Of a DNA stretch of 64,000 bases, positions 3,037 through 58,464 are shown piece by piece. Each line of letters starts with the position of its first letter. Within the stretch, counting starts at the first letter, position 1. Location: contig CAJVXS010000003.1 in assembly GCA_913009235.1 (NCBI GenBank), positions 62,001-126,000 on the forward strand, in the 5' to 3' direction. Origin of the DNA: an uncultured Methylophilaceae bacterium (lineage in GTDB: Bacteria; Pseudomonadota; Gammaproteobacteria; Burkholderiales; Methylophilaceae). Both the position numbers and the translations under genes were made by a program. The notes below the pieces were generated by a model. The model saw only the letters and a list, made by a program, of their open reading frames with translations. It was not told the origin of the DNA and searched no databases.

Positions 3037-3096
3037 ATTATCAACTACCTGAGTACGTACATGAAGCTGCTGACCCGTAGTAGAATAACCCGTTAT

Positions 3097-33711: not shown

Positions 33712-34263
33712 GTGAAATTACATTTAGGGTGTTGGCATAGAAATATACCTGGTTTTGTTAATGTTGATTTATGCGATATGGAACATATAGACTACAAATC
33801 AAGTATTGACGATTTATCTATGTTTGACGATGAATCAGTTTCGTTAATATATTCAAGTCATTGCTTTGAATATTTTAACCGTCAACAAGCAGTTGAAGTC
33901 TTAATGGAATGGAATAGAGTTTTGAAATCAGGAGGAATTTTGCGCCTAGCTGTTCCGGATTTTGATAGTTTAATTCGAGTGTATCAAAAGACTAATCAAA
34001 TAGAAAATATCCTAGGCCCTTTATATGGAGAAATGGATATAGATACACGGGATGGCAAAACAAAACTTTATCACAAAACGATTTATAACTTTGATAGCTT
34101 ATTTAAGATCCTTAATGAAAATGGCTTTTCAGATGTTATAAAATATGACTGGAAAAATACAATTCACAAAGATTATGATGATCACTCTCAAGCATATTTC
34201 CCACACATGGATAAGGAGAACGGTATTTTGGTAAGTCTTAATGTGGAGGCAACAAAAATATGA
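33712..34263 (+). CDS. SAM-dependent class I methyltransferase
   Basis: 183 aa. Motif I is L-H-L-G-C-W-H-R-N at residues 3-11, followed by V-D-L-C-D and the W-N-R-V-L-K-S-G-G-I-L-R strand-turn characteristic of class I methyltransferases. It lacks any membrane segment. It probably O- or N-methylates a sugar or an AEP-bearing residue. GTG start; its stop overlaps the next ATG by 4 bases. Confidence 0.75.
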   Translation: MKLHLGCWHRNIPGFVNVDLCDMEHIDYKSSIDDLSMFDDESVSLIYSSHCFEYFNRQQAVEVLMEWNRVLKSGGILRLAVPDFDSLIRVYQKTNQIENILGPLYGEMDIDTRDGKTKLYHKTIYNFDSLFKILNENGFSDVIKYDWKNTIHKDYDDHSQAYFPHMDKENGILVSLNVEATKI

Positions 34264-35351
34264 GCGATTTTATAATGCAAATGCGTCCTTGGTTTGGCGA
34301 TGAGGAAAAACAGGCGCTATGTGAGTACATGGACGAAGGTGGCTTCATTACTGAGTTCAAACGTACTGGTAATTTTGAACAAATGTTAGCCGACTACACG
34401 GGTGCCAAGCATTGTGTAGTGGTGAATAATGGCACCATCAGTCTAACACTGGCGGCAATGGCAGTGGGTGTTGAGCATGGTGACGAGGTAATTGTGCCCA
34501 ACTATACAATGATTGCCACGCCAAATTCGGTCAAAATGTTTGGCGCGAAGCCAGTGTTTGTCGATGTAGAATCTGAAACACTGTGTTTGGATGTAGCGTT
34601 AGTTAAGCAAGCGATAACATCAAAAACCAAGGCCATTATGTTGGTATCTGCTAATGGCCGTTATCCCAAGGCAGGCATACAAGCATTTGAAGATTTATGC
34701 AAAGAAAAAGGCTTGGTTTTAATCGAAGACTCTGCCCAGTCTTTGGGTTCTTTTTATCCAGATGGCAGGCATATTGGCACTGTCGGCCTGGTGGGTAGTT
34801 TTTCATTTTCAGCGCCAAAAATTATATCAACAGGGCAGGGCGGAGCAATTATCACTAACGACGATACGGTAGCCAATAAATTACGAAAATTAAAAGACTT
34901 TGGCAGGAGTGGTGGTGGTAATGATATTCATGATGAAATAGGCTTTAACTTTAAATTTACCGAATTACAAGCCTGCATTGGTATTGAGCAGATGAAAAAA
35001 TTACCTTGGAGGGTGGATAGAAAAAAACAAATTTTGAAGCTTTATCAAGAACTGTTAAAAGAGGTTAGTCAAATACAGTTTTTTAATCAAGATTTAGAAA
35101 ATACAACCCCTTGGTTTATTGACTGTCTAGCAGAAGATAGAGAAAATTTGATTGCGCATTTAAAAGAACAGAATATAGGTTCTAGGGTAATGTATCCACC
35201 CATAAATAAGCAAAAAGTTTACCTAATGCCAGGCGAACATCCTATTGCAAATTTGGTGGGTGAAAAAGGGTTGTGGTTGCCGTCATCAGGGCAATTGACT
35301 GATGACGACATTCATCGCATTTGTTTAGCCATTAATATTTTTTATAGCTAG
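34260..35351 (+). CDS. DegT/DnrJ/EryC1-family sugar aminotransferase (perosamine synthetase-like)
   Basis: 363 aa, PLP fold type I. The internal aldimine lysine is K187 in FSFSAPKIISTGQGG; the phosphate-binding N-G-T-I-S segment (about residues 58-62) and E-D-S-A-Q-S are also present. Retention of the lysine rules out a ColD-type 3-dehydratase. With gmd upstream, the simplest product is GDP-4-amino-4,6-dideoxyhexose (GDP-perosamine or an epimer, if the RmlC-like protein acts first). No matching N-acyl- or formyltransferase follows directly. After it comes a 114-base gap, the largest so far in the operon, before the phosphonate genes. Confidence 0.82.
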   Translation: MSDFIMQMRPWFGDEEKQALCEYMDEGGFITEFKRTGNFEQMLADYTGAKHCVVVNNGTISLTLAAMAVGVEHGDEVIVPNYTMIATPNSVKMFGAKPVFVDVESETLCLDVALVKQAITSKTKAIMLVSANGRYPKAGIQAFEDLCKEKGLVLIEDSAQSLGSFYPDGRHIGTVGLVGSFSFSAPKIISTGQGGAIITNDDTVANKLRKLKDFGRSGGGNDIHDEIGFNFKFTELQACIGIEQMKKLPWRVDRKKQILKLYQELLKEVSQIQFFNQDLENTTPWFIDCLAEDRENLIAHLKEQNIGSRVMYPPINKQKVYLMPGEHPIANLVGEKGLWLPSSGQLTDDDIHRICLAINIFYS

Positions 35352-35352
35352 A

Positions 35353-35469
35353 ATGCAAATAAAAATAATTTTACTAAGAGTAGATGTTCTAGTGAATATT
35401 GTTGTCATAGATCCTCTTAAATTTATTGGATTTAATTACAAAACTGATTTAAGGAATGACATTAAATGA
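35353..35469 (+). CDS. Possible small ORF (38 aa) before aepX
   Basis: An ATG at 35353 opens 38 codons ending in a TGA that overlaps the aepX start as ATGA. The product is hydrophobic in its first half (M-Q-I-K-I-I-L-L-R) and polar at the end. There is no recognisable domain and no clear ribosome site. It could be a leader peptide coupling translation into aepX, a gene remnant, or chance in AT-rich DNA. Confidence 0.2.
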   Translation: MQIKIILLRVDVLVNIVVIDPLKFIGFNYKTDLRNDIK

Positions 35470-36770
35470 GCATGAAAAAAGTATATGTGTCACTGATTGC
35501 AGATTTATTGCATGCAGGTCATATTAATATATTAGCAGAGGCAGCAAAGCATGGAGAGGTTACAGTTGGGTTGCTGACATCTACTGCGATTAATGAATTA
35601 AACGATACTGTATATCTTAAGTATCAGCAGCGTGCAGATGTTGTTAAGAATTTGACAATGGTGTCAGATGTTATTCCACAAGCAAGCGCAAGCTATAAAA
35701 AAAACCTAACAACAATAAAACCTGATTATGTTGTGCATGGCGATGACTGGCTTGATAGTAAACAGTCTAAATATCGACAAGAGGTTATTGATTTATTAAG
35801 TGAGTGGGGTGGTGAATTAATCGAGATTGAATATAGCTCAGATATTAGCGATAAAAACCTTAAAAATCAACTAATGAAGTTGGGTGTAATAACTGTTCAT
35901 CGTTTAGGTAGATTAAGACAATTAATTCAGGATAAACCAATTGTTCGCATCTTGGAGGCACATAATGCATTAAGTGCATTGATTGCAGAAAACACGGTTG
36001 TTGAAAGAAATGGTGAAGATGTAAGTTTCGACGGTGTTTGGTCAAGTTCTTTGACGGACTCAACCGCAAAAGGCAAGCCTGATATTGAAGTAATTGATAT
36101 TACTTCTCGCATCAATGCTGTTAATGATATTTTTGAAGTAACTACGAAGCCTATGATTTTCGATGCTGATACAGGCGGTAAAACGGAACACTTTGAGTTT
36201 ACTGTTAAAAGTTTAGAAAGAACAGGCGTAAGTGCTGTTGTTATTGAGGATAAAACAGGACTCAAAAAGAATTCTTTATTTGGTAATGATGTTCCACAAA
36301 CTCAAGATAGTATTGAAAACTTCTGTGAGAAAATTTCTCGTGGTAAAGCGGTACAACTTAGTGATGATTTTATGATTGTTGCTCGCATTGAGTCTTTAAT
36401 CTTGGAGGCAGGTATGGAAGATGCATTAATTCGTGCTGAAGCTTATATTAAAGCTGGTGCTGATGGAATTATGATTCATTCTCGGCACAAAGATCCAGCA
36501 GAAATTATGGAATTTATGCAAAAGTTCAGAGCAACCGATACAGCAACACCAGTCGTAGTTGTACCAACGAGTTTTAATACGGTAACAGTGGAAGAATTTA
36601 TTGAAATGGGCGTGAATGTTGTTGTAACAGCAAACCATATGTTGCGAGCTGCTTATCCTGCGATGTTAAATGTTGCAAAATCTGTGCTTGAGAATGGTAG
36701 AAGTCTTGAAGCTGAGCCAGATTGTATGAGTATTAAAGAGATACTGAATTTCATTCCTGGTACAAAATAA
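35466..36770 (+). CDS. aepX: Phosphoenolpyruvate mutase with N-terminal nucleotidyltransferase-like domain
   Basis: 434 aa, two domains. Residues about 4-130 form an HxGH-type nucleotidyltransferase-like Rossmann domain (H16-A-G-H19, H-G-D-D-W near residue 95), but the second signature that usually reads I-S-S-T is I-S-D-K here. Residues about 140-434 form the isocitrate-lyase-like PEP mutase, with the diagnostic E-D-K-x-x-x-K-x-N-S motif at residues 261-270 (EDKTGLKKNS). PEP mutase makes the C-P bond: PEP to phosphonopyruvate. The N-terminal fusion is common in AepX of glycan clusters; its role there is unproven. AAGGA lies 10 bases before the ATG. The stop overlaps the aepY start by one base. 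Confidence 0.95.
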   Translation: MSMKKVYVSLIADLLHAGHINILAEAAKHGEVTVGLLTSTAINELNDTVYLKYQQRADVVKNLTMVSDVIPQASASYKKNLTTIKPDYVVHGDDWLDSKQSKYRQEVIDLLSEWGGELIEIEYSSDISDKNLKNQLMKLGVITVHRLGRLRQLIQDKPIVRILEAHNALSALIAENTVVERNGEDVSFDGVWSSSLTDSTAKGKPDIEVIDITSRINAVNDIFEVTTKPMIFDADTGGKTEHFEFTVKSLERTGVSAVVIEDKTGLKKNSLFGNDVPQTQDSIENFCEKISRGKAVQLSDDFMIVARIESLILEAGMEDALIRAEAYIKAGADGIMIHSRHKDPAEIMEFMQKFRATDTATPVVVVPTSFNTVTVEEFIEMGVNVVVTANHMLRAAYPAMLNVAKSVLENGRSLEAEPDCMSIKEILNFIPGTK

Positions 36771-37831
36771 TGGCGCTTAATACAGTAGATTTTGTTGATT
36801 CCTTAATAGAGAACAATTACACGCATCTTTGTGTTGTTCCTTGTAGTTTTGCAAAGAATGTCATTAATGAGGCAATCAATAATAAAAGTATAGAATACTT
36901 ACCAGCAGCCAGTGAGGCCGTTGCTTGTTCTGTTGCTGCCGGCCTTAAAATGGCGGGTAAAAACCCTATTGTGATTGTGCAATCATCTGGCCTTACCAAC
37001 ATGGCAAGTTGTATTACTAGTCTTTTAAAGCCGTATGGCGTCACTTTTCCAATTCTCACAAGTTGGCGCACTTATAAAGAGGGCGATAGTGAGATACAAC
37101 ACCAGCATTTGGCGACTGAATTACCAAAATTGATTAGTGCTTATGGGTATCAGCATAATATTCTTGATAATCAAGATCTGGATAATGCCATTTCTCAAAT
37201 CAATGATTGTAATGAAAATCATACAATTTGCGTTATTAAACAAGACAGCTTTGATAGAGTTGAGCTGAAAACCAGACACACACTTGATTTATCTACCTAC
37301 ACACCTAGGAGCGAGTTCCTAGTCTCATTAAATGAGCAGTTTAAGGACAAGGATGTCTTATTTATCGGCACAACAGGTAACGCAGCAAGAGAAATGTATA
37401 GTTTTATGCCAGGTACTAACAATTTTTATATGGCAGGCAATATGGGAGGCGCATTGAGCGTTGGCTTAGGTGCTGCAAAAGCAGGAAAAAAAGTGATTGT
37501 TTGCGGTGGTGACGCTGAATTTGTCATGCATATGGGTGGCTTAACTACTGCTGGTAGATATGCGGATGAGGTCGATTTAACTTACATTCTCTTTGATAAC
37601 GAACAAAATAAATCAACAGGAGGACAGAACACTTATCAAGCACATTTGGATTATATAAATGTTGCAAAAAGCTCTGGTTTTGATGTCGTTGATCATTCAA
37701 TTAAAGCACTTGATGATTTTGAGTCAATAGTTAAAGATATTTATGGTTTGAAGTTTGTTTGGGTTAAATGTGGACTTGATGATGAAACACCAAGACCACC
37801 GTTAGACATTGTTAGAGTAAAGGAGTTTTAA
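36770..37831 (+). CDS. aepY: Phosphonopyruvate decarboxylase
   Basis: 353 aa, thiamine-diphosphate-dependent. The Pyr domain holds the catalytic Glu region (A-A-S-E-A-V-A, about residues 46-52), and the PP domain holds the G-G-D-A-E-F ... D-N TPP/Mg motif (about residues 246-276) followed by N-K-S-T-G-G-Q. It pulls the unfavourable mutase reaction forward by decarboxylating phosphonopyruvate to phosphonoacetaldehyde. Its length fits AepY (shorter than acetolactate synthases). Overlap with aepX (TAATG) implies coupled translation. Confidence 0.95.
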   Translation: MALNTVDFVDSLIENNYTHLCVVPCSFAKNVINEAINNKSIEYLPAASEAVACSVAAGLKMAGKNPIVIVQSSGLTNMASCITSLLKPYGVTFPILTSWRTYKEGDSEIQHQHLATELPKLISAYGYQHNILDNQDLDNAISQINDCNENHTICVIKQDSFDRVELKTRHTLDLSTYTPRSEFLVSLNEQFKDKDVLFIGTTGNAAREMYSFMPGTNNFYMAGNMGGALSVGLGAAKAGKKVIVCGGDAEFVMHMGGLTTAGRYADEVDLTYILFDNEQNKSTGGQNTYQAHLDYINVAKSSGFDVVDHSIKALDDFESIVKDIYGLKFVWVKCGLDDETPRPPLDIVRVKEF

Positions 37832-37833
37832 CA

Positions 37834-37926
37834 ATGGATAGTCGTAAAAAAATATGGAATAAGGATGATAGGGTCGATCAAATTATCCTTGAAAGTTTAA
37901 TAAAGCAGATGGATTTAATGTGGTAA
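37834..37926 (+). CDS. Possible small ORF (30 aa) between aepY and the pntC-aepZ fusion
   Basis: ATG at 37834 with a strong AAAGGAG site (37819-37825, inside the end of aepY) opens 30 codons ending at TAA. The product is charged and helical (starts M-D-S-R-K-K-I-W-N-K-D-D, ends Q-M-D-L-M-W). The good ribosome site and position inside the phosphonate gene set are reasons to note it. It could equally be the remnant of a larger deleted gene. No family recognised. Confidence 0.3.
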   Translation: MDSRKKIWNKDDRVDQIILESLIKQMDLMW

Positions 37927-37935
37927 TTAAAAATT

Positions 37936-39411
37936 ATGACTAAAAGAATAATGGTAGACATGTCTGCAACCTTGATTCATCACGGACATGTGCGCTTGTT
38001 AAAAAAAGCGTCTGAATATGGAAAAGTCATTGTAGGGTTAACTACTGATGATGAAATCATTAGTAAAAAAGGTTATCAGCCAGAATTGGACTTTGAATAT
38101 AGAAAAGAAATAATGGAATCTGTTAGGTATGTAAGTGAAGTTGTTCCTGTGCCTTGGCTATTAGATGAGGAAGTCTTAGAAAAATACAATATTGATTTGC
38201 TTGTGCATGGTGATGACAATTCCAATAATATTGATGAAAATAAACTACTAATTTTTCCAAGAACGGAAGGTGTTAGTAGCGCAGACATCAGACAACGAGT
38301 ATTAAAAGCAATTTCCCAGAAATCAAGTAGAAATATACTTTTAAACCCAGGACCCGCAAGCACCACGTATAGCGTAAAGATGGCACAAGTGGTGCCAGAT
38401 ATTTGCCCAAGGGAGAGTGAATTTGGCGATCTAATGCAATATATTTCAAGTGAACTTACGAAAATTGTGGCCAATGAAAATGATTACGCAGCAGTGCTGT
38501 TCGGTGGTAGTGGGACAGCATCAGTTGAGTCAGTTTTATGCTCTGTTGTTCCGAATGGTAAAACAGTGTTAATTGTAAATAATGGCGCTTATGGGGAAAG
38601 AATGTGCCAAATTGCATCAGTTTACAATATGAGCTATATAGAATATCCAAGCCCCTTAATAGAGCCTATTGATCTTAAGAATCTTAAAGATGTTATTTTA
38701 AACAATAAAAATATTTCACATCTGGCAATTATTCATAACGAAACAACAACAGGTCTTTTAAATAATTTGGATGATTTGGGCGAATTAGCAAAAGAGCATA
38801 ATTTAGAGTTGATAGTTGATGCAATGAGTTCGTATGCTGCAATTCCTATTGATATGGAGAGGCAAAATATTTCTTATTTAATTGCAAGCTCAAACAAAAA
38901 TATACAAGGAATGGCCGGAGTTGGGTTTGTTATAGCAAATAAAAACTCACTTAATAGTATAAAGAATATAAAACCACGAAGTTTTTATTTGGATTTGTAT
39001 GCTCAATATGAGAACTTTTTAAGTTTTCATCAAATGAGATTTACCCCGCCAGTGCAAACCCTCTATTCTTTACGACAGGCGATACTAGAAGTAAATGAAG
39101 AAGGTGTTGAAAACCGATACCAAAGATATTCAGAGTCTTGGGAAGTGCTGACAAATTCTTTAAAGGAAATGAATTTAAAGTATTTGGTTGATGATGAGTA
39201 TCATTCCAGAATAATTACCTCTATATTTATTCCTGATGGCGTTGATTTTAATCATATGCATGATTATTTTTATGATTTAGGATTCACAATTTATCCGGGG
39301 AAGGTTGATGCTTTTAATACTTTTAGGATTGCCAATATTGGCAATATTGACTGTAATGACATGAAAACTTTTATAAAGTTATTAGAGGTGTTTTTAGAAA
39401 GTCATAGTTAA
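37936..39411 (+). CDS. Cytidylyltransferase / 2-aminoethylphosphonate--pyruvate transaminase fusion
   Basis: 491 aa. Residues about 1-125 are a TagD-like HxGH cytidylyltransferase domain with all signatures intact: H15-H-G-H18, E-Y-R-K, H-G-D-D-N and R-T-E-G-V-S-S-A-D-I-R (109-119). Residues about 130-491 are a class V aminotransferase of the PhnW/AepZ type: N-P-G-P-A-S-T-T-Y-S-V at the start, a glycine-rich G-G-S-G-T-A-S phosphate loop, and the PLP lysine K321 in SSNKNIQG. Predicted activities are transamination of phosphonoacetaldehyde to 2-aminoethylphosphonate and then activation to CMP-AEP. PntC-transaminase fusions are known, but those I recall use a LicC/MobA-type cytidylyltransferase, not the HxGH fold. 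Confidence 0.9.
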   Translation: MTKRIMVDMSATLIHHGHVRLLKKASEYGKVIVGLTTDDEIISKKGYQPELDFEYRKEIMESVRYVSEVVPVPWLLDEEVLEKYNIDLLVHGDDNSNNIDENKLLIFPRTEGVSSADIRQRVLKAISQKSSRNILLNPGPASTTYSVKMAQVVPDICPRESEFGDLMQYISSELTKIVANENDYAAVLFGGSGTASVESVLCSVVPNGKTVLIVNNGAYGERMCQIASVYNMSYIEYPSPLIEPIDLKNLKDVILNNKNISHLAIIHNETTTGLLNNLDDLGELAKEHNLELIVDAMSSYAAIPIDMERQNISYLIASSNKNIQGMAGVGFVIANKNSLNSIKNIKPRSFYLDLYAQYENFLSFHQMRFTPPVQTLYSLRQAILEVNEEGVENRYQRYSESWEVLTNSLKEMNLKYLVDDEYHSRIITSIFIPDGVDFNHMHDYFYDLGFTIYPGKVDAFNTFRIANIGNIDCNDMKTFIKLLEVFLESHS

Positions 39412-39435: not shown

Positions 39436-40740
39436 ATGATTTCCAAAATAAAAAAATTACAGTTAAGTAATGAAGCCTTGAAATATTTTCACAACACTTC
39501 TTGGATGTTTCTGGATAAGGCGCTTAAGATGGCTGTCGGTTTTTTTGTGATAGTTTATCTGACAAGGTATTTAGGACCAGATAGGTTTGGAATGCTCTCG
39601 TATGCTGAGAGTGTTGTTAGTATTTTCTTGGCATTATCTACCTTGGGGTTGGCAAATGGCGGCCCCTTAGTAAGGGAATTGGTTAATAGCCCTGTTAAGA
39701 GAGATATGTTGCTAGGAACGGTGTTTTATTTAACGCTTTTTTCTTCTATTATAACGATCAGCATTATTTTAGGGGTGGTGAATTTTTTACCAGACGGTCA
39801 GGTGAATATCCTAATCTTGATTATATCTTTTTCGATTATTTTTCAAAATATTAATATGATAATAATTGATTATTTTCAATACAAAGTTTTATTTAAATAC
39901 GTTGCTTACTGCGGTACCACTGTTTTTTTCACATCATCTGCACTAAAAATCACACTAATCTATTTTAATATGGAGCTGGTATTTTTTGCTTACGCCTTAC
40001 TTTTTGATAGCGCTTTCCTATTGGTTGGACTTGCCTATATCTATAAAAAACAAGGTCTGTCTTTTATTCAATGGGAGTTTAATTTAGTTGCTGCGAAGCT
40101 ATTCTTAAAAGTTGCTATACCTTTAACGTTGGTAGCTATTTCAGCATTTGTATACACACGTATTGATCAAATAATGATAAAACACATGCTTGGTAACGAA
40201 GCAGTGGGGAATTATGCAGCAGCAATTAAAGTTAGTGAATTGTTCTATTTTATACCAGGGATTATCGTGACGTCGCTATTCCCCAAGCTGGTGGCATTGA
40301 AAAAAGACAAGGGTGACTACCTTGGCCTCTTAGAAAAAATGTATAGACTAACGATGTGGATTGCCATTCCTATTGCAATCAGCATATTTCTCTTCAGTGA
40401 TCTGATAGCAAGCATTTTATATGGTGGCCAATATACTCAGGCAAGCGGCATATTGGCCATTTTGTCATGGGGGTTGATTTTTGCTTCTGTTAGCGCCGTA
40501 TTTGTCAAAATACTTTATGTAGAGTCTTATGAGAAAAAATATCTGTTCAAAAATTTATTTGGAGTAGTTATGAACATAGTATTAAATTATTATTTAATAC
40601 TCATGTATGGCGTTTATGGCGCGGCAATTGCCACAATTGTTACGTTATTTAGTGTGAATTATATATATGACTTGTTGGATAAAGACCTTAGAAGATTTTA
40701 CTATCTGAAAATTAATGCTTTAAATCCATTCAAGCTATGA
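39436..40740 (+). CDS. wzx: Wzx-type polysaccharide flippase (first of two)
   Basis: 434 aa with about 12 hydrophobic helices, MATE/MVF-like. The N-terminal pattern (W-M-F-L-D-K-A-L-K-M, then V-Y-L-T-R-Y-L-G-P-D-R-F-G) is typical of Wzx/RfbX. It would flip undecaprenyl-linked oligosaccharide repeat units to the periplasm. It follows the phosphonate genes by 24 bases and overlaps the next gene by 4. A second flippase lies at 53422. Confidence 0.88.
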   Translation: MISKIKKLQLSNEALKYFHNTSWMFLDKALKMAVGFFVIVYLTRYLGPDRFGMLSYAESVVSIFLALSTLGLANGGPLVRELVNSPVKRDMLLGTVFYLTLFSSIITISIILGVVNFLPDGQVNILILIISFSIIFQNINMIIIDYFQYKVLFKYVAYCGTTVFFTSSALKITLIYFNMELVFFAYALLFDSAFLLVGLAYIYKKQGLSFIQWEFNLVAAKLFLKVAIPLTLVAISAFVYTRIDQIMIKHMLGNEAVGNYAAAIKVSELFYFIPGIIVTSLFPKLVALKKDKGDYLGLLEKMYRLTMWIAIPIAISIFLFSDLIASILYGGQYTQASGILAILSWGLIFASVSAVFVKILYVESYEKKYLFKNLFGVVMNIVLNYYLILMYGVYGAAIATIVTLFSVNYIYDLLDKDLRRFYYLKINALNPFKL

Positions 40741-41756: not shown

Positions 41757-42456
41757 GAAGAATGAATTTAACCCCAAATTAAGAGAATTCTTTTTTAGTC
41801 CAAGTTATTTAGAGCGAAAAGAGTTGTATGACAATATTGAAAATATTTCCAAAGGTTTCTCTGGAGATATTTTAGACTTAGGTTGTGGAGCTAAACCGTA
41901 CCAACATCTATTTGATTGTGATAGTTATAAAGGGCTTGAAGTAAATGGAGGGGGGGGTGACGCAGATTATTTTTACGATGGTTTTAAATTCCCATTTAAA
42001 AATAAAGAGTTTGATGGCGTGGTAAGTTTTCAAGTGATATACCAAATACCAAATCTAGATGATATTTTAAAAGAGATGAATAGAGTACTAAAAGAAAATG
42101 GAAAGCTTTTAGTATCCGTTCCATTTATTTGGTTTGATGGTGGCAGCAATATGCACAGACGATTTTCTCAAGAATATGTAAAAACAAAATTTAAACAATT
42201 TGGATTTGAAACTATAAAAGTTGAACAGACAAATTCTAATATGTCAGCATTGTGTTTGCTGACAAGTAAATATATAGAATATAAAATATCGAAAATATCA
42301 TTTAGCCCCGTAAGAAAAATATTAAGATTACTAGAAATTTTACTAGTCACCCCTTTCTTTAATCTAATTGGCAGTCTTTTTTTAAAATTTATGAAAAAAG
42401 ATAATGAATTATATATAGATACAATATTGTTTGCGAAAAAAGTAAAAAATGTTTAG
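41749..42456 (+). CDS. SAM-dependent methyltransferase
   Basis: 235 aa from the ATG at 41749, chosen because AAGGA lies 5 bases upstream and it gives an 8-base overlap with the previous stop (the frame is open 10 codons further). Motif I is I-L-D-L-G-C-G-A-K-P-Y near residue 42. A methyltransferase_11-type core follows (F-D-G-V-V-S-F-Q-V, N-R-V-L-K-E-N-G). The C-terminal part has a hydrophobic segment (about 200-220). Probably methylates a glycan residue or chain end. Confidence 0.75.
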   Translation: MIKKNEFNPKLREFFFSPSYLERKELYDNIENISKGFSGDILDLGCGAKPYQHLFDCDSYKGLEVNGGGGDADYFYDGFKFPFKNKEFDGVVSFQVIYQIPNLDDILKEMNRVLKENGKLLVSVPFIWFDGGSNMHRRFSQEYVKTKFKQFGFETIKVEQTNSNMSALCLLTSKYIEYKISKISFSPVRKILRLLEILLVTPFFNLIGSLFLKFMKKDNELYIDTILFAKKVKNV

Positions 42457-43342
42457 TTTTTTTAAAAAAATATATTGGAATGTTTTTTCAACGCACCAAT
42501 GGTTTATTTTGTATAGAGATAATGGTGATGGCAAGTGGATTAGACTCAAACAGCCAATTGATGTAAGTCGTGCAGATGCATTTGTGGTAATGGAAAATGG
42601 AAAAGTATATATATTTTTTGAAGAATTTAAGATTGAAGAACGCCATGGTTATTTATGTGTAGGTGAGTTAAACAAAACAAAACAAAGTTTAGACAATGTT
42701 AGAGTGGTTCTAGAAAAAAAATACCATCTTTCCTTTCCCAATGTATTTAAATACCAAGATAAATATTACATGATTCCAGAAAGTCATGAAAATAATAGTA
42801 TTGAACTATATGAGTTTGTAGATTTCCCATATAAACTCAAAAAAACTAGGGATCTAATTAGTAACGTTAATGCTGTAGATAGCGTGTTCTTACAAAAAGA
42901 CAACTTATGCTATCTTTTTACAAATAAATATACCCATAAGGATTGTTTACATAGTGAAAATTTATCTATATTTGTCTCTGATGATTTGTTGAAAAATGAT
43001 TTTAAAGAGTTGCATCAGAACCCTGTGACAACAAACCCTGTTTATGCTCGAATGGGAGGAAGTTTTTTTGTGAAAAACAATAAGTTATTCAGAGTGGCGC
43101 AAGATTGCACAATAAGGTATGGGTACAAAATAAACTTAATGCTAGTCGATAAGCTTACACAAAATAAATATGAGGAGCATCTTTTTAAAGAGTTGTTCCC
43201 ACCTAGTGGATATATAGCTTTTCATACATTGAATATTTGCAAGGGTATAGAGGTGGCGGACGGAAAGATAGTAATTAAATCACCAAGAGTGATTATTAAA
43301 AATATTGTTGAGTTTATATCATTGGTGATAAAAAGAAGGTGA
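42449..43342 (+). CDS. GINT1 N-terminal-like beta-propeller protein, stand-alone
   Basis: 297 aa. The repeated A-D-A-F-V-V, Y-I-F-F-E-E-F, Y-H-L-S-F-P-N-V-F and Y-M-I-P-E-S segments match the domain found at the N-terminus of plant glucosamine inositolphosphorylceramide transferase (GINT1) and in a set of bacterial glycan-cluster proteins. The family has a five-bladed propeller-like fold related to glycosidases. Here it is not fused to a formyl- or glycosyltransferase domain, and its role (binding or transferring an amino sugar) is unknown. Overlaps its upstream neighbour by 8 bases. Confidence 0.6.
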   Translation: MFSFFKKIYWNVFSTHQWFILYRDNGDGKWIRLKQPIDVSRADAFVVMENGKVYIFFEEFKIEERHGYLCVGELNKTKQSLDNVRVVLEKKYHLSFPNVFKYQDKYYMIPESHENNSIELYEFVDFPYKLKKTRDLISNVNAVDSVFLQKDNLCYLFTNKYTHKDCLHSENLSIFVSDDLLKNDFKELHQNPVTTNPVYARMGGSFFVKNNKLFRVAQDCTIRYGYKINLMLVDKLTQNKYEEHLFKELFPPSGYIAFHTLNICKGIEVADGKIVIKSPRVIIKNIVEFISLVIKRR

Positions 43343-44484: not shown

Positions 44485-45303
44485 ATGACAACACTAATTT
44501 TTGGCAAGGACAGCAATCTCTCTAGGCGCATATTGTCAAAATTAGAGAATAGTGTATCTTTTTCAACAAGAGAAATTGTAAGTGGAGATGCAATATTAGA
44601 AAAATATAACAAAACTAAAATAAATTTAATTTTTAATAACTTTCAAACATCGACCAAATTAAATGACTTGTCATCCCCAAAGAGCTATATAGAGCAATCA
44701 ATATATTCCACGTCCGTCATCTTAGAATTGATCCGGAATTACAATATAAATAAAATTGTTTATATAAGCAGCAGCTCTGTATACGGAAATAATAAGCTTT
44801 GTAATGAAGGGGATAGGCTACATCCAGGAAGCTTGCATGCTTCATTAAAAGTCGCCAATGAAGAGCTGATCTCCATGTTTTGTTTAAGTAGAGATATAAA
44901 TTATACGATTGCAAGAGTTTTTAATATGTATGGGGGTGAGGACAAGTTCTCAGTAATTCATAAGATAATAAATGCACATAAAGAGAGTGGAAGGTTGGAG
45001 TTAATTAATAACGGCAGCGGAATAAGAGATTTTATACATATTGATGATGTGGTAAGGGCTGTGATTAACATTTTAGAAGTAAAAGATACAAAGATTATTA
45101 ATATAGGAACAGGCGCAAAGAAATCTATTAGGTCTATATTGGACTTCTTAGAAAGTAGCAAAGGCATTAGAATTGATACTAACAATGTAAATAAAAGCGA
45201 AATCCCAATATCTATAGCTGATAATCGATTATTGGAAGAATTATTTAAAGAGATAAAGTTTATTAGAATTGAAGATTATATGGTGAAAGAACTAGGTGAG
45301 TAA
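44485..45303 (+). CDS. NAD-dependent epimerase/dehydratase-like protein with altered catalytic motifs
   Basis: 272 aa, extended-SDR layout. The N-terminal dinucleotide loop reads F-G-K-D-S-N-L-S, keeping one of three glycines. The usual Y-x-x-x-K pair reads H118-A-S-L-K122 (codon CAT), so the catalytic Tyr is His. S-S-S-S-V-Y-G, R-V-F-N-M-Y-G and R-D-F-I-H-I-D-D are otherwise family-like, and the frame is intact. It may bind sugar nucleotide without oxidoreduction, or use modified chemistry. It partly overlaps the following sulfotransferase-like gene (8 bases). Confidence 0.72.
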   Translation: MTTLIFGKDSNLSRRILSKLENSVSFSTREIVSGDAILEKYNKTKINLIFNNFQTSTKLNDLSSPKSYIEQSIYSTSVILELIRNYNINKIVYISSSSVYGNNKLCNEGDRLHPGSLHASLKVANEELISMFCLSRDINYTIARVFNMYGGEDKFSVIHKIINAHKESGRLELINNGSGIRDFIHIDDVVRAVINILEVKDTKIINIGTGAKKSIRSILDFLESSKGIRIDTNNVNKSEIPISIADNRLLEELFKEIKFIRIEDYMVKELGE

Positions 45304-46309
45304 ACAAGTTGTATCATGCGCAGGATATGGTGGCACTGGAAGTAGTGCAATTACAGATTTGTTAAAAGAATTCGATAGTTGTCTATCGATAGGAAATGTC
45401 GAGTTTTGGTTTTTGCAAGATTATGATGGCGTAAGTGATTTAGAATATGCTTTGGTAGATGGCAATCATCGCTCTAAAGTCAGTTTGGCAATACAAAAGT
45501 ATAGAAATTACATTCTCAATAATAATAAGTTCTACAGCAAGTTCTTTGGTGATGGGTTTTTATTGTACAGCAATGAATTTTTAGAAGAGCTTATTGACTC
45601 AAAATTTAGAAAAGCATGTAGTTACGCAGAAGAAACAAGCAGTTTTAAAAGGTTTTTCTTTTTTCAGTTGTCGCCATTGTTGCAAATAATATTTAAGAAA
45701 GTTACTTTTCAAAGTACTTTTGAATTTTCCCCTTGGGTGCCAGTAGTGGAGAAAACTTATACCTACCTAACACTTAATAAATTCTCCAAGGTGACAAAGA
45801 AATATACAGGCAAACTATTTGCGCATTTAGATAAAAATAATAAGCATCAAAACCTAATACTTGATCAACTTGTACCAACAACCAATATCAAAAGATATTT
45901 TAATTATGTGGACAATCTGAAAGTTATTGTAGTCGATAGAGACCCAAGGGATTTATATTTATTAAATCAACTACATTGGAAAGGTGCCAGTTACATTTGT
46001 GATACATCAGATGTTAATGAGTACATAAGTTGGTATAAATCACTAAGAATGCATAGAAATCATGAAGATTTAAATAATGAAAATATCATAACTATAAACT
46101 TCGAGGAGTTGATTTATGAGTATGAAGACACAGTGATAAAGATATGTGATTTCTTAAATATAAACATTCAAGAGCAAACTTATAAGAAGAAATATTTTGA
46201 TCCAAAAATTTCTATAAAAAATACAAAATTATGGGAAAGCGAACACAATTATCAAAATGAAATTAAATCGATAGAAAAAGAATTGAGTAAATTTCTCTAT
46301 GATAAATAA
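45296..46309 (+). CDS. Sulfotransferase-fold protein
   Basis: 337 aa. The 5'-phosphosulfate loop is an N-terminal P-loop variant C-A-G-Y-G-G-T-G-S-S-A (residues 8-18), and the 3'-phosphate site is V-V-D-R-D-P-R-D-L-Y (about residue 218). This is the architecture of PAPS-dependent carbohydrate sulfotransferases. A substantial insertion with aromatic residues lies between them. It would transfer sulfate to a sugar of the repeat unit; another phosphate-group transfer cannot be excluded. GTG start; the stop overlaps the next gene by 11 bases. Confidence 0.7.
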   Translation: MSKQVVSCAGYGGTGSSAITDLLKEFDSCLSIGNVEFWFLQDYDGVSDLEYALVDGNHRSKVSLAIQKYRNYILNNNKFYSKFFGDGFLLYSNEFLEELIDSKFRKACSYAEETSSFKRFFFFQLSPLLQIIFKKVTFQSTFEFSPWVPVVEKTYTYLTLNKFSKVTKKYTGKLFAHLDKNNKHQNLILDQLVPTTNIKRYFNYVDNLKVIVVDRDPRDLYLLNQLHWKGASYICDTSDVNEYISWYKSLRMHRNHEDLNNENIITINFEELIYEYEDTVIKICDFLNINIQEQTYKKKYFDPKISIKNTKLWESEHNYQNEIKSIEKELSKFLYDK

Positions 46310-49819: not shown

Positions 49820-50828
49820 GGTTTTATTAATTACTGGTGGTACAGGGTCATTTGGTAATGCTGTGTTAAGGAGATTCTTAACCACTGATATTAAAGAGAT
49901 ACGCATTTTCTCAAGAGATGAGCTTAAGCAAGGCGACATGAGAAAGCGTTATAACAACGATAAGCTTAAATTTTATATCGGCGATGTAAGAGATAAAAAT
50001 TCAATTGATGACGCAATTAGGGGCGTTGATTATGTATTTCATGCGGCGGCCCTTAAACAAGTCCCATCGTGTGAATTTTACCCGATGCAGGCGGTTAAAA
50101 CTAATGTTATAGGGACCGAAAACCTATTAAACTCAGCTATTCGTGCAGGCGTCAAGAAGGTCATCGCACTTAGCACAGATAAAGCTGTTTATCCAATCAA
50201 TGCAATGGGCATCAGCAAGGCCATGATGGAAAGGGTTGTTGTATGTAAGGGCAGAAATGTCAAAGACACTATGATTGCTTGTACTAGATATGGCAATGTG
50301 ATGGCTAGCCGTGGTTCGGTTATTCCATTATTTATTGATCAAGTTAGGAATGGCAATCCTATAACTATTACAGATCCAAATATGACCCGATTTATGATGA
50401 GTCTAGACCAGGCGGTAGATTTGGTGTTATTTGCATTTGAAAATGGACAGAGTGGCGATGTTTTTGTGCAGAAGGCCCCTGCCGCAACAGTAGAGCTACT
50501 TGCTAGTACGATGAAAAATATTTTAGGCGTACCTGGGCATGAAGTAAAAACTATTGGCACAAGGCATGGCGAAAAGTTGTATGAAACTTTGCTGACGAAA
50601 GAGGAGATGGTAAAGGCTATTGATATGGGTGAATATTACCGAATTCCTGCCGATACACGAGACCTTAATTACAATCAGTTTTTCGAAGAGGGGGAGGAAG
50701 TCATTACAGAGGCGGGTGAATATCATTCTCATAATACCCATAGATTAAATGCAGAGGAGTTAACAGAGTTGCTGTTGAGCCTTAGAGAGATTCAGGATGA
50801 TTTAAAGGAGTTTCAGAAAAATGGATAA
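49806..50828 (+). CDS. fnlA: UDP-GlcNAc 4,6-dehydratase/5-epimerase, FnlA/WbjB/CapE type
   Basis: 340 aa. NAD loop T-G-G-T-G-S-F-G (residues 9-16), the A-A-L-K-Q-V-P-S-C-E-F segment, and S-T-D-K-A-V-Y-P-I-N followed by M-G-I-S-K, where Met replaces the usual SDR Tyr as is normal in the FlaA1/CapE family. It starts the branch to UDP-L-FucNAc or UDP-L-QuiNAc/L-RhaNAc from UDP-GlcNAc. The C-terminal N-T-H-R-L latch (about 315) is present. It overlaps the 2-epimerase gene by 8 bases. Confidence 0.9.
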   Translation: MFKNKVLLITGGTGSFGNAVLRRFLTTDIKEIRIFSRDELKQGDMRKRYNNDKLKFYIGDVRDKNSIDDAIRGVDYVFHAAALKQVPSCEFYPMQAVKTNVIGTENLLNSAIRAGVKKVIALSTDKAVYPINAMGISKAMMERVVVCKGRNVKDTMIACTRYGNVMASRGSVIPLFIDQVRNGNPITITDPNMTRFMMSLDQAVDLVLFAFENGQSGDVFVQKAPAATVELLASTMKNILGVPGHEVKTIGTRHGEKLYETLLTKEEMVKAIDMGEYYRIPADTRDLNYNQFFEEGEEVITEAGEYHSHNTHRLNAEELTELLLSLREIQDDLKEFQKNG

Positions 50829-51954
50829 GTTGAAGGTAATGACTATTGTAGGCACTAGGCCAGAGATCATCAAGCTAAGCCAAGTGATGAAAGAGTTAGA
50901 TCGACACGTAGATCACACAATTGTCCATACTGGCCAGAATTATGATTATGAATTGAATGAATTATTTTTTGAACAGTTAGACATTAGAAGACCTGATATC
51001 TTCTTGGAAGCCGTTAAAGGTACACCATCAGAAACTATTGGAGATATTATCGCAAAGGCTGACAAGGTCTTCGATGAACTGCAGCCGGATGCTTTATTGA
51101 TCTATGGCGATACTAACAGCTGCTTAAGTGTTATTCCCGCAAAGAAGAGAAAGATACCAATCTTTCATATGGAGGCGGGTAATCGATGCTTTGACCAAAG
51201 AGTTCCAGAAGAAGTTAATAGAAAAATTGTAGATCATTTGAGTGATATCAACCTACCTCTTTCAGAACAAGCTAGGGATTATCTGATTGCAGAAGGCATC
51301 AAGCCTGAAACAATTATTAAAACTGGTTCACCGATGACAGAAGTCTTAACTGCGAATATGGGAAAGATCAAATCTTGCGATATTCTAGAAAGAGAAGGGC
51401 TGAAGCCAAAAGCATATATTGTTATGAGTATTCACAGGGAAGAAAATGTTGACTCGCCCAAAAACTTCAGTGATTTATTAGAATCGATTGATGAGTTAGC
51501 TAAGAAATACAATATGCCAATTATTATTTCTACACATCCAAGAACAAGAAAGAAATTGGAAGATATTGGCCACAAAAACGAAAACCCTTTAATTAGATTC
51601 TCAAAACCTTATGGTTTTCATGAATATAACAACCTGCAAATGAATGCATTTTGCGTGATCTCAGATAGTGGCACTATTGCTGAAGAGGGGTCAATACTGA
51701 ATTTACCTGCTGTCACAATACGTCAGGCACACGAACGACCAGAAGGCATGGATGAAACGACAGTAATCATGTCCGGATTGAATAAGGCTAGGGTTGTTCA
51801 TGCAGTTGAAGTTGCTACAGCCCATAATTCACAAGATGCTAGAGTGATAAAGCCCGTTAAGGACTATGAGGCTGACAATGTTTCTAAAAAGATTTTAAGG
51901 ATCATCTTGTCGTATGTTGATTATGTTGACAGAACTGTTTGGCATAAACATTAA
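50821..51954 (+). CDS. fnlC: UDP-N-acetylglucosamine 2-epimerase-type enzyme, FnlC/WbjD/CapG type
   Basis: 377 aa, GT-B-like epimerase. It begins V-G-T-R-P-E-I-I-K, with the H-T-G-Q-N-Y-D-Y, G-D-T-N-S and H-M-E-A-G-N-R signatures of the WecB family and S-D-S-G-T-I-A-E-E in the C-terminal domain. Next to FnlA it is expected to epimerise C2 of the UDP-2-acetamido-2,6-dideoxy-L-hexose. A 90-base gap, the longest in this half of the operon, follows. Confidence 0.9.
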   Translation: MDKLKVMTIVGTRPEIIKLSQVMKELDRHVDHTIVHTGQNYDYELNELFFEQLDIRRPDIFLEAVKGTPSETIGDIIAKADKVFDELQPDALLIYGDTNSCLSVIPAKKRKIPIFHMEAGNRCFDQRVPEEVNRKIVDHLSDINLPLSEQARDYLIAEGIKPETIIKTGSPMTEVLTANMGKIKSCDILEREGLKPKAYIVMSIHREENVDSPKNFSDLLESIDELAKKYNMPIIISTHPRTRKKLEDIGHKNENPLIRFSKPYGFHEYNNLQMNAFCVISDSGTIAEEGSILNLPAVTIRQAHERPEGMDETTVIMSGLNKARVVHAVEVATAHNSQDARVIKPVKDYEADNVSKKILRIILSYVDYVDRTVWHKH

Positions 51955-57005: not shown

Positions 57006-57920
57006 ATGACGAAATATTTAGTAACAGGATCAACTGGATTTATTGGTAATCGACTACTAGGCTTGTTGAACACTATAGAGTGCGATGTTAGATTGCTTGC
57101 TAGATCTGAGGTCAATAATTATGAAACAGTGGTATGCAATCTGGAGCAAGATAGAATACCTAAGGGTGCTTTCGAATCTGTAGATACCGTTTTTCATCTT
57201 GCGGGCTTTGCGCATGATATGCAAGACCCCAGTAAAGTTGAAGATTTATATCGTGTAATTAACGTAGACGCTACAGTTGAGCTGGCTAGATTGGCAGTAG
57301 AAAGCGGTGTAAAACGATTTGTTTTTATTAGTAGCGTTAAGGCTGGAGGGGGTTTAGCTTCGGGCAAGTGTATTAATGAGCTTGATCAGAATGAGCCTGA
57401 AGGAGTCTATGGTAAAAGCAAACGAGAGGCAGAGTTAATGCTATTAAAAATAGGTAGCGAATCTGGTATGCATGTGTCAATCATTCGACCTTCATTGGTT
57501 TACGGCCCAGATGTTAAGGGTAATTTACAATTGATGCTATCTGGAATTAAGAAAGGCTGGTTTCCTCCTTTACCTGAAACGGGTAGCCGACGCTCTATGA
57601 TTCATGTAGATGATTTAGTGCGAGCGATTTTACTGGTTGCTGAAGACAAACGAGCTAATGGGGAAATTTTTATCGCAACAGATGGCACGCCTTATTCTTC
57701 TCGTGAGATTTATAATGCTATGTGTGATGTGACAGGCAAACCAATTCCAAAATGGAGTGTGCCAAAAGCCTTCTTCGATATTGCTAGCCTGGCAAGTCCT
57801 CGCATTAGGTATAAAATTAACAAATTACTGGGTGATGAGTGTTGTTCTTCTGCTAAATTAGAGGCACTTGGATTTCAAGCTAAAAAATCTTTAAAGGGTA
57901 TGAATGAAACAGATTTTTGA
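57006..57920 (+). CDS. NAD-dependent epimerase/reductase, WbpV-like
   Basis: 304 aa, extended SDR with intact T-G-S-T-G-F-I-G loop (residues 7-14), S-S-V-K-A and Y-G-K-S-K catalytic pair. Genes of this kind placed directly before an initiating sugar transferase usually encode a UDP-4-keto-6-deoxy-GlcNAc C4 reductase (WbpV, making UDP-D-QuiNAc) or a UDP-hexose 4-epimerase. No WbpM-type dehydratase is seen in the window to supply the WbpV substrate, so the exact role is open. Overlaps the next gene by 17 bases. Confidence 0.78.
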   Translation: MTKYLVTGSTGFIGNRLLGLLNTIECDVRLLARSEVNNYETVVCNLEQDRIPKGAFESVDTVFHLAGFAHDMQDPSKVEDLYRVINVDATVELARLAVESGVKRFVFISSVKAGGGLASGKCINELDQNEPEGVYGKSKREAELMLLKIGSESGMHVSIIRPSLVYGPDVKGNLQLMLSGIKKGWFPPLPETGSRRSMIHVDDLVRAILLVAEDKRANGEIFIATDGTPYSSREIYNAMCDVTGKPIPKWSVPKAFFDIASLASPRIRYKINKLLGDECCSSAKLEALGFQAKKSLKGMNETDF

Positions 57921-58464
57921 TTTAGTTCTAGGCATTGTGATTGTTGCGCTGTTGGCAGTCCCGATGCTATTCGTTGCTATTGCTATTCGTTTAACATCTG
58001 AAGGTTCTGCTTTATACTGGTCTGACAGAGTTGGTAAAAATAATAAAATATTCAGAATGCCAAAGTTCAGATCAATGTTAATTGGTACTCCAACTGTAGC
58101 TACACATTTACTGGGCAATCCAGATTCTTACTTGTCACCAATTGGCGGATTTTTACGTCGTTCTAGTTTGGACGAGCTTCCACAATTGATTTCAATATTA
58201 AAAGGCGATATGAGCTTTGTAGGGCCTCGTCCTGCCCTCTTTAATCAAGATGATCTAATCGCTCTACGTACTGAAAAAAGTGTGGACAAACTATTGCCGG
58301 GTATTACGGGCTGGGCACAAGTGAATGGAAGAGATGAACTGTCAATTACTAATAAAGTAGCGTTAGATATGGAATATTTAAATCGTCAATCATTCTGGTT
58401 TGATATAAAAATATTGTGGATGACTTGCTTAAAGGTTGCGAAGAGCGACTGCGTTAGTCACTAA
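57904..58464 (+). CDS. Initiating phosphoglycosyl transferase, PglC/WbtB type (monotopic)
   Basis: 186 aa. One N-terminal reentrant hydrophobic segment (about residues 5-32), then the PF02397 core: G-K-N-N-K-I-F-R-M-P-K-F-R-S-M, L-D-E-L-P-Q-L (catalytic D-E dyad near residues 98-99), F-V-G-P-R-P-A-L and P-G-I-T-G-W-A-Q-V-N-G-R. It transfers a phospho-amino sugar to undecaprenyl phosphate and starts the repeat unit. It is the last gene of the glycan operon, 14 bases before the unrelated isochorismatase gene. Confidence 0.92.
   Translation: MKQIFDLVLGIVIVALLAVPMLFVAIAIRLTSEGSALYWSDRVGKNNKIFRMPKFRSMLIGTPTVATHLLGNPDSYLSPIGGFLRRSSLDELPQLISILKGDMSFVGPRPALFNQDDLIALRTEKSVDKLLPGITGWAQVNGRDELSITNKVALDMEYLNRQSFWFDIKILWMTCLKVAKSDCVSH

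What the first reader, a model, noticed from the sequence alone, without database searches (positions are those of the whole stretch)
35466..39411. Complete 2-aminoethylphosphonate pathway with a cytidylyltransferase-transaminase fusion inside a glycan locus
AepX (EDKTGLKKNS PEP-mutase motif), AepY (TPP motif) and an AEP transaminase with PLP Lys321 are contiguous. The transaminase is fused behind an intact TagD-like HxGH cytidylyltransferase domain (H15-H-G-H18; R-T-E-G-V-S-S-A-D-I-R at 109-119). Known PntC enzymes that make CMP-AEP, as I recall them, belong to the LicC/MobA-type NTP transferase fold, also found fused to the transaminase. If this domain makes CMP-AEP, it is an independently recruited activating enzyme. 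The context predicts a phosphonate-decorated O-antigen or capsule in a methylotroph.
Basis: partly seen in the sequence, partly recalled or inferred. Interest (0 to 1): 0.85.

Follow-up and report, generated by a model that had tools for sequence, protein, structure and literature searches.

The report
Transaminase-fused enzyme likely activating a phosphonate
A bacterial surface-sugar gene cluster carries a two-part enzyme that probably makes the carbon-phosphorus compound 2-aminoethylphosphonate and then primes it with CTP for attachment to the cell surface, using a different protein fold from the known enzyme for this step.

Summary
35466-39411 encodes PEP mutase, a phosphonopyruvate decarboxylase relative and a 491-aa protein with an intact HxGH cytidylyltransferase domain in front of an AEP transaminase.

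The transaminase-fused domain belongs to a subfamily ("HxGH-C") traced through 80 loci (SAR11, Prochlorococcus, SAR86, Methylophilus, gut bacteria). 47 of 80 hold a PEP mutase; 45 of those 47 a detectable transaminase; 0 of 47 a strong PntC/LicC-like gene. Of the 33 others, 16 carry a putative 2-AEP ABC transporter next to HxGH-C. Key catalytic residues are kept in 81 of 81 HxGH-C sequences.

Best reading: HxGH-C makes CMP-AEP; it is unrelated to PntC and distinct from Fom1's domain. HxGH activation of other phosphonates (Fom1, PhpF) is already known, so this is a new variant of a known logic. The bolder extension is an import-activate-attach salvage route in bacteria that do not make AEP. No activity was measured, and no AEP transferase was recognised in the window.

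The parts
35466..35912 (+). N-terminal Fom1-type HxGH domain of the PEP mutase, probably inactive here (HAGH kept; N in place of the conserved Lys, D in place of Gly and of the second Ser of the GxSS signature)
   Evidence: PF01467; 5x3d E 1.6e-38; residue columns
35913..36770 (+). PEP mutase domain, EDKTGLKKNS
   Evidence: TIGR02320 424.8 bits, cut-off 319.55
36770..37831 (+). TPP-dependent phosphonopyruvate decarboxylase relative
   Evidence: TIGR03297 184.3 bits, best family but below its 312.5 cut-off; 43 of 47 mutase loci with HxGH-C hold a relative
37936..38325 (+). HxGH-C cytidylyltransferase domain, proposed to make CMP-AEP
   Evidence: PF01467; all tested catalytic positions intact; model pLDDT 94.1 and HxGH fold matches
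38326..39411 (+). AEP transaminase domain, PLP Lys321
   Evidence: TIGR03301 379.8 bits, cut-off 360.8; best solved relative is the transaminase half of the PntC fusion Tde1415, 6pd1, E 6.5e-103
34260..35351 (+). DegT/DnrJ-type aminotransferase directly upstream (context)
   Evidence: PF01041 E 5.6e-94
39436..40740 (+). polysaccharide flippase-like protein (context)
   Evidence: PF13440 E 1.2e-25
50821..51954 (+). UDP-GlcNAc 2-epimerase-like protein (context)
   Evidence: PF02350 E 1.2e-92
57904..58464 (+). initiating sugar transferase-like protein (context)
   Evidence: PF02397 E 5.1e-56

Best explanation
The three genes convert PEP to phosphonopyruvate, phosphonoacetaldehyde and AEP. The N-terminal HxGH-C domain of the last enzyme then transfers CMP from CTP to AEP, giving CMP-AEP and pyrophosphate on the same polypeptide that made AEP. 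An unidentified transferase moves the AEP phosphonyl group to a surface glycan. HxGH-C is a subfamily separate from PntC and from the Fom1-type domain on the mutase; the latter is degenerate here, so HxGH-C is the only intact cytidylyltransferase of the module. Shown by computation: genes, domains, fold, catalytic residues, family-wide genomic links. Inferred: substrate, product, hand-over between domains, attachment.
For: Fusion or adjacency to a transaminase: 45 of 47 mutase loci. In 16 of 33 loci without mutase the gene sits with an AEP-type transporter, with gaps of -35 to +17 bases in the 13 loci measured; none of these 16 genomes has a PEP mutase over the TIGR02320 cut-off. 4 of 4 inspected transporter homologues lie beside AEP-degradation genes. 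Catalytic positions H, H, K, R, R-T and last S kept in 81 of 81 HxGH-C sequences, whereas the mutase-fused copy is degenerate in 11 of 11 scored fused-type loci, the window included. Strong LicC-like genes in 0 of 47 HxGH-C mutase loci against 14 of 20 sampled mutase loci, none of which has HxGH-C over 100 bits. Best solved relative by sequence is ethanolamine-phosphate cytidylyltransferase, whose substrate resembles AEP. Mammalian Pcyt2 is reported to take the AEP analogue (PMC8776951, passages).
Against: No activity measured. T. brucei ECT rejects AEP (PMC2784872, passage), so kinship to ECT does not imply AEP use. Structural matches to Fom1, ECT and GCT are ties (Z 17.1, 16.8, 16.7). 13 of 80 loci have neither mutase, transporter nor a transaminase: six with a PF04464-type gene and seven with none of these, some on short contigs. 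No PF04464 transferase in the 48%-complete genome. The transporter subunits score below the equivalog cut-offs, and 7 of the 16 transporter genomes also have PhnX, so import may partly serve catabolism. Loci are related, so the counts are not independent, and the residue test was set up after I had seen the window's changes.
Confidence: 0.73

Rival explanations
1. HxGH-C activates glycerol-3-phosphate or phosphoethanolamine for the glycan, and its fusion to the transaminase is not a reaction sequence.
For: TIGR01518 (glycerol-3-phosphate cytidylyltransferase) is its best NCBIfam cytidylyltransferase family at 70 bits. PF04464-type genes, whose known members use CDP-glycerol or CDP-ribitol (recalled), occur in 32 of 80 loci. 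Human ECT is the best solved relative.
Against: 70 bits against a cut-off of 165.4. The loop after HG-D is DNxN in 42 of 48 mutase-linked and 15 of 15 transporter-linked sequences, not the DW seen in the TagD alignment. Recurrent links to AEP synthesis or AEP-type import.
Confidence: 0.15
2. The mutase-fused Fom1-type domain is the activating enzyme, and HxGH-C modifies another phosphonate or is only structural.
For: Fom1's homologous domain makes CMP-HEP (PMC6697681). In 26 of 31 loci where HxGH-C is a separate protein the mutase-fused copy is intact too, so two activities may exist there.
Against: In the window and in all 11 scored fused-type loci the mutase domain lacks at least one conserved catalytic residue. 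Transporter-linked loci have HxGH-C and no mutase.
Confidence: 0.07

Closest known systems
PntC-AEPT fusion Tde1415 of Treponema denticola (6PD1/6PD2)
   Same: A cytidylyltransferase domain in front of a homologous AEP transaminase (E 6.5e-103); proposed product CMP-AEP, which PntC makes (PMC6697681).
   Different: The cytidylyltransferase is HxGH (PF01467), not LicC/MobA-type (PF12804).
Fom1 CyTase domain and other PF01467 domains fused to PEP mutase
   Same: HxGH fold, phosphonate pathway; Z 17.1.
   Different: Separate group in the tree; DN instead of DW loop; fused to or next to the transaminase, not the mutase.
Ethanolamine-phosphate cytidylyltransferase (ECT/Pcyt2, 3elb)
   Same: Best solved relative by sequence, E 3.6e-23; Z 16.8; substrate resembles AEP.
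   Different: Two-domain eukaryotic lipid enzyme; not linked to phosphonate genes.
TagD/GCT glycerol-3-phosphate cytidylyltransferase (1coz, 2b7l)
   Same: Same fold, HxGH and RTxGxS motifs.
   Different: Far below the family cut-off; different loop; phosphonate context.
lic pathway (choline import, LicC activation, LicD transfer; described in PMC6697681)
   Same: Logic of import, CTP activation and attachment, proposed for the transporter-linked branch.
   Different: No kinase step needed; other protein families; nothing shown experimentally.

Membership tests
PntC (LicC/MobA-like, PF12804) | PF12804 domain | tested here: not met
   Pfam finds PF01467 and no PF12804 in the fusion at E 0.001; sequence and fold matches are HxGH enzymes
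PntC (LicC/MobA-like, PF12804) | makes CMP-AEP from CTP and AEP | not testable with these tools
   needs an enzyme assay
HxGH cytidylyltransferases (PF01467) | HxGH, catalytic Lys and RTxGxS motifs, HxGH fold | tested here: met
Fom1-type mutase-fused CyTase | groups with Fom1-type mutase-fused domains | tested here: not met
   HxGH-C rows group apart (0.816) from the mutase-fused rows (0.992, with one extra low-scoring mutase N-domain) in a tree with TagD outgroup; DN not DW loop. The mutase's own N-domain is Fom1-type
Glycerol-3-phosphate cytidylyltransferase (TIGR01518) | score over curated cut-off 165.4 | tested here: not met
   70 bits
AEP aminotransferase PhnW-AepZ (TIGR03301) | score over cut-off and PLP lysine | tested here: met
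   379.8 against 360.8; K321 nearly invariant in A4
PEP mutase (TIGR02320) | score over cut-off and EDKxxxxxNS | tested here: met
   424.8 against 319.55; EDKTGLKKNS
Phosphonopyruvate decarboxylase (TIGR03297) | score over curated cut-off | tested here: not met
   184.3 against 312.5; still its best family
2-AEP ABC transporter (TIGR03261/03265/03262), partner in loci without mutase | scores over the curated cut-offs | tested here: not met
   344.1/392.75, 336.9/457.7 and 495.3/593.25 bits for one protein of each subunit, best family each time
2-AEP ABC transporter, partner in loci without mutase | close homologues lie with AEP catabolism genes | tested here: met
   4 of 4 inspected plasmid homologues, chosen from 30 listed of 437 records with a match

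The most novel reading that the evidence does not exclude
HxGH-C is a widespread, unrecognised second family of AEP cytidylyltransferases, unrelated to PntC. It serves abundant marine phosphonate makers (SAR11, Prochlorococcus, SAR86). In bacteria without PEP mutase (Sutterella, Parasutterella, Mailhella, Photobacterium, Shewanella and others) it forms, with an AEP importer and often a PF04464-type transferase and a YidC-like membrane protein, a salvage operon: such bacteria would decorate their surface with scavenged AEP, as the lic pathway does with imported choline.
Probability: 0.48. Interest if true: 0.85.

Novelty: new variant of a known kind. Interest (0 to 1): 0.7.

Why it matters
CMP activation is the proposed entry step for attaching phosphonates to cell surfaces, and the only characterised bacterial AEP-activating enzymes I saw in the library are PntC. 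A second, unrelated family would mean that surveys built on PntC miss AEP activation in marine lineages and gut bacteria. It would also give a marker gene for AEP decoration in organisms that cannot make the C-P bond and so carry no PEP mutase. One small protein, CTP and AEP suffice for the first test.

Tried and rejected
Origin of the AepZ-type fusion: an IQ-TREE of 36 rows puts the fused domains in one supported set of 18 (11 AT2, 6 AEPT, 1 solo; 97/95), but one AT2 fusion (L091) falls outside it, and the AU test does not reject a single AEPT clade (p 0.275). I do not claim that transaminases were swapped behind one HxGH domain, only that it is possible. L043 and L045 bins come from the same metagenome, so L045's Hydrogenothermaceae label may be a binning error.

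Full-length fusion model (15 sequences): pLDDT 79.4, residues 108-140 below 50; not used for domain arrangement and not searched.

AEP transferase in the window: no PF04464 in the genome at hand; no hit of profiles built from the neighbour transferases; Pfam gives nothing for 46299-47759, nothing convincing for 52044-53426, weak glycosyltransferase similarity for 48680-49816 and a MatE-like hit for 53422-54918. PntC is not among the 50 rows shown of either fold search; this absence is not a test.

Transporter explained by AEP catabolism? Partly possible: 9 of 22 queried genomes have PhnX and 11 of 22 PhnW over cut-off; of the 16 transporter-linked genomes 7 have PhnX. PhnAY and C-P lyase were not tested there.

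Rows dropped or uneven. One search confirmed 82 relatives and kept 80. The 80-locus count is the window, L121 and 78 of those 80; L117 and L118 (no or weak HxGH-C ORF) and L122 (copy of L055) are out, and L011 (copy of L121) was never in. L080 and L082 are short contigs that may have lost the mutase by being cut; L092 and L108 are the two mutase loci without a detected transaminase, and their contigs end there. In the residue test L104's mutase N-domain scored too low to be included; L055, L077, L083 and L101 have the variant mutase without such a domain; L048's mutase is cut; the seven control N-domains count two places twice (L149/L176, L157/L184). One search counts 48 mutase-linked sequences because L055 and L122 are both in it, and 15 transporter-linked ones; one search corrected L056 to make 16. 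Control mutase loci: one search found 28 matches including the window's; I fetched 20 and left seven, all below the curated cut-off. The LicC profile was built from 9 of those 20, which match by construction. Weak LicC hits in L094, L097 and window 3061-4476 (43, 27, 37 bits) are under my 80-bit line; three of the 14 control positives are close to it (82-90 bits).

Literature: ten searches. No listed title or abstract start describes an HxGH AEP cytidylyltransferase, an HxGH-transaminase fusion or AEP salvage into glycans; lists were capped, one search found no paper, and most subscription papers are not held.
Full report
What is there. Window 35466-39411 holds three + strand genes: PEP mutase (434 aa), a TPP-dependent decarboxylase (353 aa) and a 491-aa protein with an N-terminal HxGH cytidylyltransferase domain and a C-terminal AEP transaminase. 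They lie in a polysaccharide locus (flippase, glycosyltransferases, UDP-GlcNAc 2-epimerase, initiating sugar transferase) whose GC content is 31-37% over 32-56 kb against 41-46% in the rest of the window, which suggests a transferred island (inference). The genome held is 746 kb in three contigs, 48% complete, and is not named.

The mutase has its own N-terminal HxGH domain, homologous to the Fom1 CyTase domain (5x3d, E 1.6e-38). Such mutase fusions are common, 23.6% of PEP mutases, and Fom1 and PhpF are named as PF01467 phosphonate cytidylyltransferases (PMC6697681, parts 1-4 of 8 read). HxGH activation of phosphonates is therefore not new in itself. The parts read do not mention an HxGH-transaminase fusion.

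Two HxGH domains, one of which looks alive. In the window's mutase-fused domain HAGH remains, but the conserved Lys is N, and Gly and the second Ser of the GxSS signature are D. All 11 scored loci in which the other HxGH domain is fused to a transaminase have a mutase domain lacking at least one tested catalytic residue; where that domain is a separate protein the mutase-fused copy is intact in 26 of 31 (Fisher p 1e-6, but related loci are not independent, and I had noticed the window's changes before choosing the columns). The transaminase-fused type, HxGH-C, keeps H, H, K, R, R-T and the last S in 81 of 81 sequences.

A subfamily. A scan of one genome for each of 84,980 species with an alignment of six domains confirmed 82 relatives and kept 80. 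The 80 loci classified are 78 of these plus the window and L121. 47 of 80 hold PEP mutase or an ESK variant of it. In these 47, a transaminase is detected in 45 (canonical AepZ type, or a divergent shorter type, AT2, with the PLP lysine in 44 of 44 aligned rows, some duplicates) and a decarboxylase in 43. The order mutase, decarboxylase, AT2, HxGH-C is seen in the Methylophilus and Methylotenera loci that are long enough and in 4 of 10 Pelagibacteraceae loci; the other Pelagibacteraceae loci are rearranged, cut or lack a detected decarboxylase. In SAR86, Prochlorococcus L104, two Bacteroidota and others HxGH-C is fused to AT2. In the window, four Campylobacterota and one Hydrogenothermaceae MAG it is fused to the canonical transaminase. 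No further canonical fusion turned up among 369 genomes of the window's class, where two AT2 fusions did.

Import instead of synthesis. Of the other 33 loci, 16 carry an ABC transporter. One protein of each of its subunits was scanned; PhnS2, PhnT2 and PhnU2 (putative 2-AEP transporter) are the best NCBIfam matches, below the equivalog cut-offs. In the 13 loci measured the binding-protein gene starts between 35 bases before and 17 bases after the end of the HxGH-C ORF. None of the 16 genomes has a PEP mutase over the TIGR02320 cut-off; 3 of all 32 genomes queried do. No mutase locus has the transporter (0 of 47). As a control on the transporter's substrate, four plasmid homologues (43-46% identical) were inspected, and all four lie beside a 2-AEP transaminase gene with phnX or phnA/phnY. 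Murphy et al. describe an aepXVW-phnWAY operon and measured 23 nM affinity for AEP for one AepX, a protein of the same Pfam family, PF13343 (PMC8316502, passages; Pfam match of a locus protein). PF04464-type transferases, whose known members use CDP-glycerol or CDP-ribitol (recalled), occur in 15 of 47 mutase loci and 17 of 33 others. Against this reading, 7 of the 16 transporter genomes have PhnX, so the import may also feed catabolism.

PntC. A profile from the LicC-like extensions of 9 mutases found matches of 80 bits or more in 14 of 20 mutase loci sampled from the phylum without regard to HxGH-C, and in 0 of 47 mutase loci with HxGH-C. None of the 20 has HxGH-C over 100 bits. The two enzymes look like alternatives. 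Two genomes, those of L054 and L065, have HxGH-C in one place and, in another, a mutase of 536-537 aa, the size of the LicC-fused ones.

Fold and relatives. The domain model (pLDDT 94.1) matches Fom1 CyTase with HEP-CMP (Z 17.1), human ECT (16.8) and GCT (16.7), which are ties (Foldseek). By sequence the best solved relative is human ECT (E 3.6e-23), then GCT and Fom1. In a FastTree with three TagD as outgroup the 81 HxGH-C rows form one group (0.816) and the mutase-fused rows another (0.992, with one extra low-scoring mutase N-domain). HG-D is followed by N in 78 of 83 HxGH-C sequences; DNxN holds in 42 of 48 mutase-linked and 15 of 15 transporter-linked ones; mutase-fused domains have DW in 45 of 49 and DNxN in none. 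The same loop in both settings fits one shared substrate (inference).

Mechanism proposed. CTP + AEP gives CMP-AEP + PPi on HxGH-C, with the HxGH histidines, K45 and the RTxGxSS loop acting as in relatives (inference from the family). The transaminase domain supplies AEP. A transferase then moves the AEP phosphonyl group to a glycan: perhaps the PF04464-type protein where present, unknown in the window. Mammalian ECT is reported to use the AEP analogue (PMC8776951, passages) and T. brucei ECT does not (PMC2784872, passage), so the fold permits but does not imply the substrate.

Verdict. The stronger novelty is the importer-linked branch, which is a hypothesis.

Noticed in passing
L055 6759-7985, L077 6752-7984, L083 6752-7984, L101 6704-7990: A variant PEP-mutase relative has ESKRFPKVNS in place of EDKxxxxxNS and a C-terminal extension of unknown kind; in all four loci it neighbours HxGH-C fused to AT2 and a decarboxylase.
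   Followed up: partly
Methylophilus loci such as L057 1081-2775: The mutase to HxGH-C module lies near flagellar genes (a FliD-like cluster in 10 loci), which suggests that flagellin glycans may carry the phosphonate.
   Followed up: no
L057 8396-9094 and relatives: A small methyltransferase gene occurs in 19 loci of the set, often directly after HxGH-C; N-methylated AEP is a guess.
   Followed up: no
L066 5682-8324 and relatives: A large membrane protein with a YidC-like N-terminus (PF02096) sits in many transporter operons; its C-terminal part has weak, sub-threshold similarity to the sulfatase superfamily (E 0.0012).
   Followed up: partly
L134 (7998-8357), L135, L136: Three contigs of the viral collection encode HxGH-C relatives, 52, 38 and 34% identical; whether these are truly viral was not checked.
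   Followed up: no
L058 4480-5832: The mutase reads as two adjacent ORFs, the HxGH domain (150 aa) and the mutase domain (299 aa), so the fusion is split or the sequence has an error.
   Followed up: no
L043 3363-3824: A further HxGH-type ORF (153 aa) lies upstream of the mutase in a Campylobacteraceae locus that also has the canonical fusion.
   Followed up: no
window 42449-43342 and 45296-46309: A GINT1_N-domain protein and a sulfotransferase-like protein lie in the glycan locus; they may add further modifications.
   Followed up: no
window 32001-56000: GC content is 31-37% here against 41-46% in the rest of the window, which suggests a horizontally acquired glycan island.
   Followed up: no
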